Virus record (IMG/VR): IMGVR_UViG_3300020467_000013
Span: 1-42,037 of that record
From: a virus
Reading direction: 5' to 3' (one strand)
Length of the DNA stretch: 42,037 nucleotides
Under the pieces are notes generated by a model. That model made no database searches. It saw only the letters and a list, made by a program, of their open reading frames with translations, and was not told the DNA's origin. Of this stretch, positions 1,111 to 7,592 are shown piece after piece; position 1 is the first letter of the stretch, and every line of letters starts with the position of its first letter. Position numbers and translations under genes: made by a program.

Positions 1111-1136
1111 AGGAGGGGTTGACACCCTCCTTTTTT
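1111..1136 (+). terminator. Rho-independent terminator
   Basis: AGGAGGG (1111-1117) pairs with CCCTCCT (1125-1131) and is followed by a T run. It closes the unit carrying the riboswitch-like leader, the 53-aa peptide and the DUF4278-like gene. Its loop and 3' arm contain the TTGACA of the next promoter. Confidence 0.85.
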
Positions 1137-1147
1137 CATGCCATAAT
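1119..1147 (+). promoter_or_regulatory. Sigma70-type promoter overlapping the terminator
   Basis: TTGACA at 1119-1124, 17-bp spacer, CATAAT at 1142-1147. The -35 box lies in the loop of the terminator hairpin. Predicted transcription start is near 1154, giving about 215 nt of leader before talC or a separate small RNA. Confidence 0.6.
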
Positions 1148-1153
1148 AACTTT

Positions 1154-1334
1154 GTGCCTGATCAGCACATTGGGTGTGACTGAATAAACTTACTGGCATA
1201 TAGCTGGTTAAGGTGATGAGACACAGGTGGTGCTGCACCGAAAGGTGAATCGACTTACCAGTCGGGTCTCAGGCAGAGATGTTTTTACTACTGTAGTAAT
1301 GCCCATCTCTTGTTGGTACACAGGAATCCAACCA
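1154..1334 (+). ncRNA. Unidentified structured RNA / talC leader
   Basis: No ORF occupies this stretch. Paired segments visible by eye: GTGC/GCAC (1154-1168); TGAGAC/GTCTCA (1217-1222 with 1266-1271) enclosing a junction; CACC-GAAA-GGTG (1236-1247), a GNRA-capped hairpin that competes with GGTG-CTG-CACC (1229-1239); CGACT-TACC-AGTCG (1251-1264); AGAGATG/CATCTCT (1275-1281 with 1304-1310) with an inner TTACTAC/GTAGTAA; and GTTGG/CCAAC (1312-1316 with 1328-1332). TGGTT (1205-1209) can pair with AACCA (1330-1334) to close the whole domain. I do not recognise the family; a riboswitch, sRNA or processed leader are all possible. Confidence 0.5.
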
Positions 1335-1370
1335 CCCTCCTTACTAAATAATGAAACGACTTAAAGAACG

Positions 1371-2042
1371 ATGAAAATCTTCCTAGACAGTAGCAACGTT
1401 GATGAAATTACTAAAGCAGTTGACACTGGTCTGATTGATGGAGTAACTACAAACCCCTCCCTCATGCTTAAAGCAGGGGAAGATCCAACAGAAGTACTAA
1501 AACAAATTTGTGATTTATTCTCATGGGATGCATCTGTTTCTGCTGAAGTGTCTGGAGACACCTCTGAAGAGATGCTAGACATGGCAGACGAGTATATTAA
1601 TATACATCCAAGCATTACTATCAAGGTTCCATGTAATATAGAAGGACTTAAAGCATGTAAAGACTTAAAGTCTGATGAGATACCAGTTAATGTAACTCTT
1701 ATCTTCTCTGTAGCACAAGCAATACTTGCTGCTAAAGCAGGTGCAAAATATGTGTCACCATTTGTAGGTAGAGTACAGGATAATAATTTTGATGGTGTTA
1801 AACTTGTTGGAGATATTGTAAAGACATTTGAGACACACGAAAGAGACACACAGATACTTGCTGCATCATTACGATCAGTTTATGATGTGTCAAGTTGTTT
1901 CCAAGTTGGAGCAGACATAGTTACTATGCCACCTAAATTATTCTGGGGCATGTACAACCATATCCTAACGGAGAAAGGTTTACAGATCTTTAATGCAGAT
2001 TGGGCGAAAGTCAAAGAGATCATTAAAGAACGTGAAGTTTAA
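1371..2042 (+). CDS. talC: Transaldolase, fructose-6-phosphate aldolase-like (TalC)
   Basis: TalC moves a three-carbon dihydroxyacetone unit between sugar phosphates in the non-oxidative pentose phosphate pathway. At 223 aa it is the short TalC/FSA type, not the longer host TalB type. Motifs: N-terminal 'KIFLDSSN' with the conserved Asp6, 'GVTTNPSL' at residues 24-31, and the Schiff-base Lys85 in 'TIKVP', the same number as in E. coli FSA. Cyanophage talC is known to work with phage CP12 (here at 30662) to shift carbon from the Calvin cycle to NADPH and ribose production. ACTAAATA (1343-1350) upstream could be a weak late promoter, and a long folded leader lies before it. Confidence 0.95.
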   Translation: MKIFLDSSNVDEITKAVDTGLIDGVTTNPSLMLKAGEDPTEVLKQICDLFSWDASVSAEVSGDTSEEMLDMADEYINIHPSITIKVPCNIEGLKACKDLKSDEIPVNVTLIFSVAQAILAAKAGAKYVSPFVGRVQDNNFDGVKLVGDIVKTFETHERDTQILAASLRSVYDVSSCFQVGADIVTMPPKLFWGMYNHILTEKGLQIFNADWAKVKEIIKEREV

Positions 2043-6506: not shown

Positions 6507-7592
6507 ATGACAACAATCTCAAGAAGAGAGCAAGGTCTACTGTCAGGATGGAGTGAGTTTTGTGAGTGGGTTACAAGTACAAACAACAGACTTTATGTCG
6601 GTTGGTTTGGAGTTTTAATGATTCCTTGCTTGTTAGCTGCTGCTACTTGCTTTATCGTGGCATTTATTGCTGCTCCTCCCGTAGATATCGACGGGATTCG
6701 TGAACCTGTTGCAGGTTCATTCATGTATGGTAACAACATCATCTCTGGTGCTGTCGTTCCATCTTCCAACGCTATTGGATTACACTTCTACCCTATATGG
6801 GAAGCTGCCACTATAGATGAGTGGTTATACAACGGTGGTCCTTATCAGTTGGTTATCTTCCATTTCCTTATTGGAATCTCTGCTTACATGGGCAGACAGT
6901 GGGAGTTATCATATCGATTAGGTATGAGACCATGGATCTGTGTAGCATATAGTGCTCCAGTATCTGCTGCTTTCGCAGTGTTCTTAGTATATCCATTTGG
7001 TCAGGGTTCATTCTCTGATGGAATGCCTCTAGGTATTTCTGGTACGTTTAACTTCATGTTCGTATTCCAAGCAGAGCATAACATTCTTATGCATCCTTTC
7101 CATATGGCAGGGGTAGCAGGTATGTTCGGTGGATCACTCTTTAGTGCTATGCACGGTTCTCTAGTTACATCTTCTCTAATCAGAGAGACAACAGAAACTG
7201 AGTCTCAGAACTATGGTTACAAGTTTGGTCAAGAAGAAGAGACCTACAACATCGTTGCTGCTCATGGATACTTCGGTAGATTAATCTTCCAGTATGCATC
7301 GTTTAACAACAGTAGATCACTACACTTCTTCCTCGCTACATTCCCAGTTGTATGTGTTTGGTTAACTTCTATGGGTATATGCACAATGGCATTTAACCTT
7401 AACGGATTTAACTTTAACCAATCAGTTGTGGATGCAAACGGTAAGGTCGTTCCAACATGGGGCGATGTTTTAAACAGAGCAAACTTAGGTATGGAAGTTA
7501 TGCATGAAAGAAATGCACACAACTTCCCATTAGACTTAGCATCTGCTGAGACTTCCGAAGTTGCTTTACTTGCTGCTCCTAGCATTGGGTAA
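6507..7592 (+). CDS. psbA: Photosystem II D1 protein
   Basis: D1 is the reaction-centre subunit of photosystem II that binds P680 chlorophyll, pheophytin, QB and the Mn cluster, and it is damaged by light. The 361-aa protein is full length and uninterrupted, one residue longer than usual. It has the '[20 protein letters not shown]' block, '[16 protein letters not shown]' with TyrZ, '[11 protein letters not shown]', and a C-terminal tail after 'LDLASAE' that would be cut by the host protease. Position 130 (131 here) is Gln in 'GRQWELSY', the D1:1 or low-light form. Phage D1 replaces the host's during infection. No intron is present. Confidence 0.98.

What the first reader, a model, noticed from the sequence alone, without database searches (positions are those of the whole stretch)
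1119..1345. Undescribed structured RNA with its own promoter, ahead of talC
A perfect -35 inside a terminator loop, a 17-bp spacer and CATAAT start a transcript of about 200 nt with no ORF but at least six hairpins, a multi-branch junction closed by TGAGAC/GTCTCA, and two mutually exclusive pairings of CACC (1236-1239): with GGTG 1229-1232 or with GGTG 1244-1247 through a GAAA tetraloop. This looks like a ligand- or protein-sensing leader of talC or a separate sRNA. I cannot place it in a known class.
Basis: partly seen in the sequence, partly recalled or inferred. Interest (0 to 1): 0.66.

Follow-up and report, generated by a model that had tools for sequence, protein, structure and literature searches.

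The report
manA RNA ahead of cyanophage transaldolase
The stretch is a textbook copy of manA RNA, a structured RNA already known from viruses of marine cyanobacteria; comparing it with relatives suggests, without proving it, that this orphan RNA is a free-standing viral RNA made from its own promoter rather than a switch for one particular gene.

Summary
Window 1152-1342 (+) is a full-length hit to Rfam manA RNA (RF01745: 186.5 bits, gathering cutoff 55.2), described in 2010 from marine metagenomes and T4-like cyanophages. Cyanophage P-RSM6 has the same promoter-manA-talC layout. Folding energy is no better than shuffled (z -0.94), but covariation is strong: 31 of 53 pairs show two-sided changes in 62 homologues, none of 500 shuffles reaching it.

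The comparison adds something. In about 80 of 91 non-redundant copies a sigma-70-like promoter ends within 12 nt of the RNA; in 31 of 88 its -35 lies in a terminator loop. All 14 manA-bearing phage records hold exactly one copy, next to different genes. In S-CREM1 it sits between tRNA-Leu and tRNA-Asn; in 12 of about 200 loci a tRNA follows within 20 nt. A conserved 3' hairpin without an Rfam match occurs almost only after manA. I favour a discrete early phage RNA over a talC riboswitch, at moderate confidence; its target is unknown.

The parts
1111..1136 (+). Terminator-like hairpin AGGAGGG-GTTGACA-CCCTCCT plus T6, ending the upstream transcript; the -35 box is in its loop and the T-run is in the promoter spacer
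   Evidence: stem 7 pairs, 5 GC, then TTTTTT; same hybrid in P-RSM6 and in 31 of 88 manA loci versus 8 of 101 other promoter-like sites in the same contigs
1119..1147 (+). Sigma-70-type promoter TTGACA-17-CATAAT with extended -10 TG; predicted start about 1153-1155 (inferred)
   Evidence: promoter-like match in 84 of 91 non-redundant homologous loci, about 80 of them with the -10 ending 0-12 nt before the element
1152..1342 (+). manA RNA (RF01745), full length, model positions 1-192
   Evidence: 186.5 bits, gathering 55.2
1152..1170 (+). 5' hairpin, variable in sequence among homologues
   Evidence: structure; poorly aligned helix 1
1172..1337 (+). Closing stem GGGUG 1172-1176 / CACCC 1333-1337 (most homologues GGGAG/CUCCC: compensatory change)
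   Evidence: helix 2: 100% paired, A-U to U-A in 7 sequences
1217..1271 (+). Branch stem TGAGAC 1217-1222 / GTCTCA 1266-1271 carrying two sub-hairpins (CAG/CUG with GUGGUG loop; CACC-GAAA-GGUG) and the ACCA-loop hairpin
   Evidence: helix 5 has 5 of 6 pairs with two-sided changes
1344..1350 (+). CTAAATA, late-promoter-like motif between manA and talC; a late talC mRNA starting here would lack manA (inferred)
   Evidence: [ATC]TAAATA within 110 nt after manA in 28% of loci versus 5% of control windows
1371..2042 (+). talC, transaldolase-like gene (neighbour; cotranscription inferred, not shown)
   Evidence: ORF; P-RSM6 homologue annotated transaldolase

Best explanation
The element is a manA RNA (near certain). 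It most likely works as a discrete, highly structured non-coding RNA of T4-like cyanophages. Host sigma-70 polymerase initiates at its first hairpin from a strong promoter, which in this phage also serves as the terminator of the gene before. The RNA folds into a multi-branched structure with invariant unpaired segments and acts in trans, probably on a protein, ribosome component or other RNA during infection. It uses neighbouring transcription units as carriers: tRNA arrays, or an early read-through into whatever gene follows, here talC. Shown here: family, structure, promoter conservation, copy number, changing neighbours. Inferred: early timing, independence from talC, action in trans. The target is not known.
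For: Identity. Structure: 92.2% of pair cells standard, 280 cells with two-sided changes versus 63 in shuffles. Promoter: 84 of 91 loci score as promoter-like, about 80 with the -10 ending within 12 nt of the element. One copy each in 14 manA-bearing phage records and in 4 long contigs. Downstream genes differ: gp32 22, talC 14, thyX 10, DUF6561 9, PMM 6, Hsp20 4 and others among 101. S-CREM1 manA lies between tRNA-Leu and tRNA-Asn without own promoter; S-SSM7 manA abuts tRNA-Gly; in all, 12 of about 200 loci have a same-strand tRNA 6-20 nt after, about 0.2 expected. 40 of 86 loci have a terminator (15), the companion hairpin (18) or a tRNA (7) right after manA; canonical terminator 17 of 88 versus 1.9% of controls. 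No enrichment of Shine-Dalgarno motifs after manA (15 of 59 versus 110 of 466), so an anti-SD platform is not general. Not a host RNA: 1 of 251 host-family genomes, on what looks like a phage contig of a single-cell genome.
Against: In 46 of 86 loci, and in this window too, nothing obvious ends the RNA before the next gene. The next gene is co-directional in 80 of 80 tested loci, more than on the left side (70 of 84, p = 7e-5), as a leader would require, although own-promoter direction alone could explain this. Recurring downstream genes (gp32, talC, thyX, PMM) are functionally coherent for phage metabolism. Weinberg et al. 2010 judged manA certainly cis-regulatory and probably a riboswitch. 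No RNA-seq, ligand or target evidence was available here.
Confidence: 0.52

Rival explanations
1. manA is a cis-acting leader (riboswitch or protein-binding element) controlling the gene downstream, here talC, as proposed in 2010.
For: Next gene always co-directional and often 12-80 nt away; metabolic genes recur downstream; prior expert assignment; terminator-like hairpins after manA in some loci could be expression platforms.
Against: One copy per phage with changing downstream gene; copies bounded by tRNAs with no mRNA directly downstream; no SD enrichment; in this window a late-promoter-like site lies after manA, so late talC mRNA would bypass it.
Confidence: 0.36
2. manA is a structural 5' cap or insulator: a promoter-RNA cassette that stabilises or boosts early transcripts of whichever phage gene it precedes, without sensing anything.
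For: Transcription would start exactly at a stable 5' hairpin; diverse downstream genes.
Against: Invariant unpaired segments such as CUGAAUAAACUU, GUGGUG and ACCA are hard to explain by stability alone (though the retrieval pattern itself biases the first of these); single copy per genome.
Confidence: 0.1
3. Chance hairpins in an intergenic spacer.
For: Folding energy z-score only -0.94; isolated promoter scan at chance level.
Against: Rfam E about 1e-50 and strong covariation.
Confidence: 0.01

Closest known systems
manA RNA, Rfam RF01745 (Weinberg et al. 2010, PMC2864571; Rfam 14 update, PMC7779021)
   Same: Full-length match, same helices, same phage group, same kind of neighbour (sugar or nucleotide metabolism)
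   Different: Window copy has GGGUG/CACCC closing stem instead of the commoner GGGAG/CUCCC; own promoter fused to a terminator, which the Rfam model does not cover
manA-talC locus of cyanophage P-RSM6 (HQ634193)
   Same: 88.5% identical DNA over 95% of the 900-1500 query; identical terminator/-35 hybrid, manA, CTAAATAATG, talC
   Different: Compensatory closing-stem difference and small differences in the variable hairpins
manA of Synechococcus phage S-CREM1 (PMC9964418), annotated cis-regulatory
   Same: Same family (96.6 bits)
   Different: Sits between tRNA-Leu and tRNA-Asn, no own promoter seen; search of the paper's main text found no mention of this placement
wcaG and PhotoRC-II RNAs
   Same: Other orphan structured RNAs of cyanophages
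   Different: Different families; not detected in this window

Membership tests
manA RNA (RF01745) | Covariance-model score above the curated gathering cutoff, full length | tested here: met
   186.5 versus 55.2 bits, positions 1-192 of 192
manA RNA (RF01745) | Consensus multi-branch structure supported by covariation in homologues | tested here: met
   52 of 53 pairs canonical in the window; 31 pairs with two-sided change, 0 of 500 shuffles as high
manA RNA (RF01745) | Occurs in T4-like cyanophages or marine metagenomes | tested here: met
   Closest DNA is P-RSM6; 14 cyanomyovirus records carry it
manA RNA (RF01745) | Located in the potential 5' UTR of a sugar, nucleotide or photosynthesis gene | tested here: met
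   talC starts 28 nt after the element
Riboswitch | Binds a ligand that alters RNA structure | not testable with these tools
   needs in-line probing or SHAPE with metabolites
Riboswitch | Expression platform coupling aptamer to terminator or SD of the downstream gene | tested here: inconclusive
   No terminator before talC here; terminator, hairpin or tRNA in 40 of 86 loci; SD frequency not raised
Free-standing phage sRNA or ncRNA | Own promoter at the 5' end | tested here: met
Free-standing phage sRNA or ncRNA | Own 3' end (terminator or processing site) | tested here: not met
   None seen between manA and talC in this window; met in 40 of 86 homologous loci and in S-CREM1 and S-SSM7
Free-standing phage sRNA or ncRNA | Discrete RNA species in infected cells | not testable with these tools
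   needs RNA-seq or Northern

The most novel reading that the evidence does not exclude
manA, filed since 2010 as a cis-regulatory riboswitch candidate, is a single-copy, trans-acting structural RNA of T4-like cyanophages. It is made early by host polymerase, or cut out of tRNA arrays, and in one subgroup carries a conserved 3' hairpin that the Rfam model does not cover.
Probability: 0.45. Interest if true: 0.66.

Novelty: new member of a known kind. Interest (0 to 1): 0.4.

Why it matters
As a discovery claim the finding is ordinary: the RNA class is known and this exact layout is in P-RSM6. It matters because manA is an orphan family with no reported function in the papers found. The comparison shows one copy per phage, a conserved promoter at its 5' end, unrelated neighbours and tRNA-bounded copies. 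That makes a testable case that the 'Cis-reg' label is wrong and that abundant ocean phages carry an uncharacterised large RNA.

Tried and rejected
Energy-based folding test: uninformative (z -0.94). Anti-Shine-Dalgarno expression platform using the CUCCC strand: SD frequency after manA equals background. Host origin: only 1 of 251 host-family genomes; of 75 bacterial or archaeal contigs with the 16-mer, only L158, L192 and the truncated L146 are manA, and these look phage-like. Terminator/-35 hybrid as specific to manA: rejected, it also precedes protein genes, but it is enriched at manA (31 of 88 versus 8 of 101) and about 60% of 114 exact hybrids are followed by manA. My first impression that the P-TIM68 downstream gene is convergent: the sequence fits a co-directional ORF like those of L065/L094 (not tested further). 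Literature for a solved function or for a described promoter-terminator hybrid in cyanophages: nothing found in the held library.

Full report
Observation. TTGACA 1119-1124 lies in the loop of the hairpin 1111-1131, which is followed by six T. CATAAT 1142-1147 follows after 17 nt, with a TG one base before it. In one isolated sequence such a promoter match is expected about once by chance, and the minimum free energy of 1152-1345 is not better than shuffled sequence (z -0.94). The single-sequence evidence is therefore weak, and the case rests on homology.

Identity. Rfam's cmscan finds exactly one family in the 42-kb window: manA RNA, RF01745, 1152-1342 on the + strand, model positions 1-192 of 192, 186.5 bits against a gathering score of 55.2. 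Weinberg et al. 2010 (PMC2864571) described manA from marine metagenomes, T4-like cyanophages and two gamma-proteobacteria. They placed it in potential 5' UTRs of mannose or fructose, nucleotide, chaperone and photosynthesis genes, and listed it as certainly cis-regulatory and probably a riboswitch. The Rfam 14 paper (PMC7779021) reports 48 significantly covarying pairs. The window's closest record is cyanophage P-RSM6, 88.5% identical over 95% of the 900-1500 query, with the same terminator/-35 hybrid, manA, CTAAATAATG and talC.

Structure. I retrieved 120 viral stretches with the conserved 16-mer GTGACTGAATAAACTT and aligned 62 sequences. On the Rfam structure mapped through the window, 92.2% of cells form standard pairs and 31 of 53 pairs show two-sided changes. 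No shuffle of 500 reached any of the five measures, and sliding the partners by 1-3 columns collapses the signal. Because the sequences were found through one conserved string, invariance inside that string is partly by construction. The GAAA hairpin is the conserved pairing, and its arms covary.

Promoter. In 91 non-redundant loci with enough upstream sequence, a promoter-like match (8 of 12 or better) was found in 84. In 80 of these the -10 box of the best match ends 0-12 nt before the element's first hairpin; the other four best matches lie further upstream and are probably chance. A few loci counted as lacking a match carry TTGACA and TATAAA-like boxes that the scan's rule missed (sequences). 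In 31 of 88 loci the -35 lies in a terminator hairpin whose T-run fills the spacer, as in the window, against 8 of 101 other promoter-like sites in the same contigs. The exact string GGGTTGACACCCTCTTTTTT occurs in 106 viral stretches. Of 114 occurrences in the loci held, 58 precede clear manA, 11 partial or divergent manA, and others precede ordinary genes. So the hybrid is a general cyanophage device that manA uses often.

Copy number and neighbours. Fourteen of 20 cyanomyovirus records hold manA, each exactly once; Syn19, S-WAM1, S-PM2, Syn9, S-SM2 and S-ShM2 have none above the cutoff, nor has the podovirus P-SSP7. Most of the 14 were chosen because they matched the window, so the fraction is not a prevalence. 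Four long contigs also hold one full copy each. Among 101 downstream proteins, Pfam finds gp32 22, transaldolase 14, ThyX 10, DUF6561 9, phosphomannomutase 6, Hsp20 4, 2OG oxygenases 4, gp25 2, PurS 2 and mannose-6-phosphate isomerase 1 (one search agrees). The next gene was co-directional in 80 of 80 loci, versus 70 of 84 on the left. In five isolates manA follows the capsid gene gp23 with differing genes after it.

3' side. Of 86 non-redundant loci, 15 have a canonical terminator, 18 a conserved companion hairpin, 7 a tRNA within 20 nt, 10 only a TAAATA late-promoter-like motif and 36 none of these. Canonical terminators lie within 150 nt in 17 of 88 loci against 1.9% of control windows. In S-CREM1, tRNA-Leu ends at 1499, manA spans 1501-1715 and tRNA-Asn starts at 1714 of locus L317, with tRNA sequence, not a promoter, directly upstream. 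In S-SSM7, manA ends where tRNA-Gly begins. Overall 12 loci have a same-strand tRNA 6-20 nt after manA, where about 0.2 would be expected. Shine-Dalgarno motifs are no commoner after manA than elsewhere.

Companion hairpin. GACCUAAGAUGCAACUC-loop-GAGUCGGGCAGAUGGUC, often with U-runs on both sides, follows manA in 101 of 108 assessable exact hits; the 7 others lack the hairpin. It has no Rfam match. Variation is small but compensatory at two sites. The window does not carry it.

Mechanism. Shown: family, conserved structure, conserved promoter position, single copy, changing neighbours, tRNA-bounded copies. Inferred: transcription by host sigma-70 polymerase early in infection, a discrete RNA, action in trans. 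In this window the RNA could read into talC, and the CTAAATA at 1344-1350 could give a late talC mRNA without manA. I put about 0.5 on the discrete-RNA model and 0.36 on the cis-leader model. The host does not carry manA: 1 of 251 host-family genomes, on what appears to be a phage contig.

Verdict. The worthwhile residue is the evidence that the family may be misfiled as cis-regulatory.

Noticed in passing
L044:3627-3667 (-), L011:3492-3532, L016:785-825 and about 100 others: Conserved 40-nt hairpin GACCUAAGAUGCAACUC...GAGUCGGGCAGAUGGUC directly after manA, found almost only there, no Rfam match; a likely 3' module or terminator of the manA transcript.
   Followed up: partly
window 1111-1147; L199, L227, L255 and others: Terminator hairpin with the -35 box in its loop and the T-run as spacer: a recurring cyanophage terminator-promoter fusion, also used before protein genes.
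   Followed up: partly
L317:1418-1788 (S-CREM1): manA bounded on both sides by tRNA genes; the published annotation lists it as cis-regulatory.
   Followed up: yes
L199:4808-5000, L242, L263; L200, L240, L249, L281, L288: Two divergent manA-like sequence types (GUGACAGAAUAACGCUUGUGG... and UGACUGAAUAACCCUGUUGGAAUUAGGCGGGG...) after the same promoter hybrid; not scored separately.
   Followed up: no
L016:312-360: Glutamine riboswitch (RF01739, 37.7 bits) about 230 nt upstream of manA in the same contig.
   Followed up: no
L297:2066-2239 (P-SSM4), L301:1997-2173 (P-HM1), L304:2005-2211 (S-SSM5): Small annotated hypothetical ORFs overlap the manA RNA and are probably spurious.
   Followed up: no
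L299:2289-2594 (P-TIM68): Gene annotated on the minus strand just after manA; the DNA after manA resembles the co-directional ORF of L065/L094, so the annotated strand may be wrong.
   Followed up: no
window 692, 1344, 7890, 13938, 18154, 23220, 30629, 36886, 39369: TAAATA late-promoter-like motifs, 26 on + versus 6 on -, several as CTAAATAATG at gene starts.
   Followed up: no
window 6507-7592: ORF of 361 aa that looks like psbA (photosystem II D1), judged from its sequence only.
   Followed up: no
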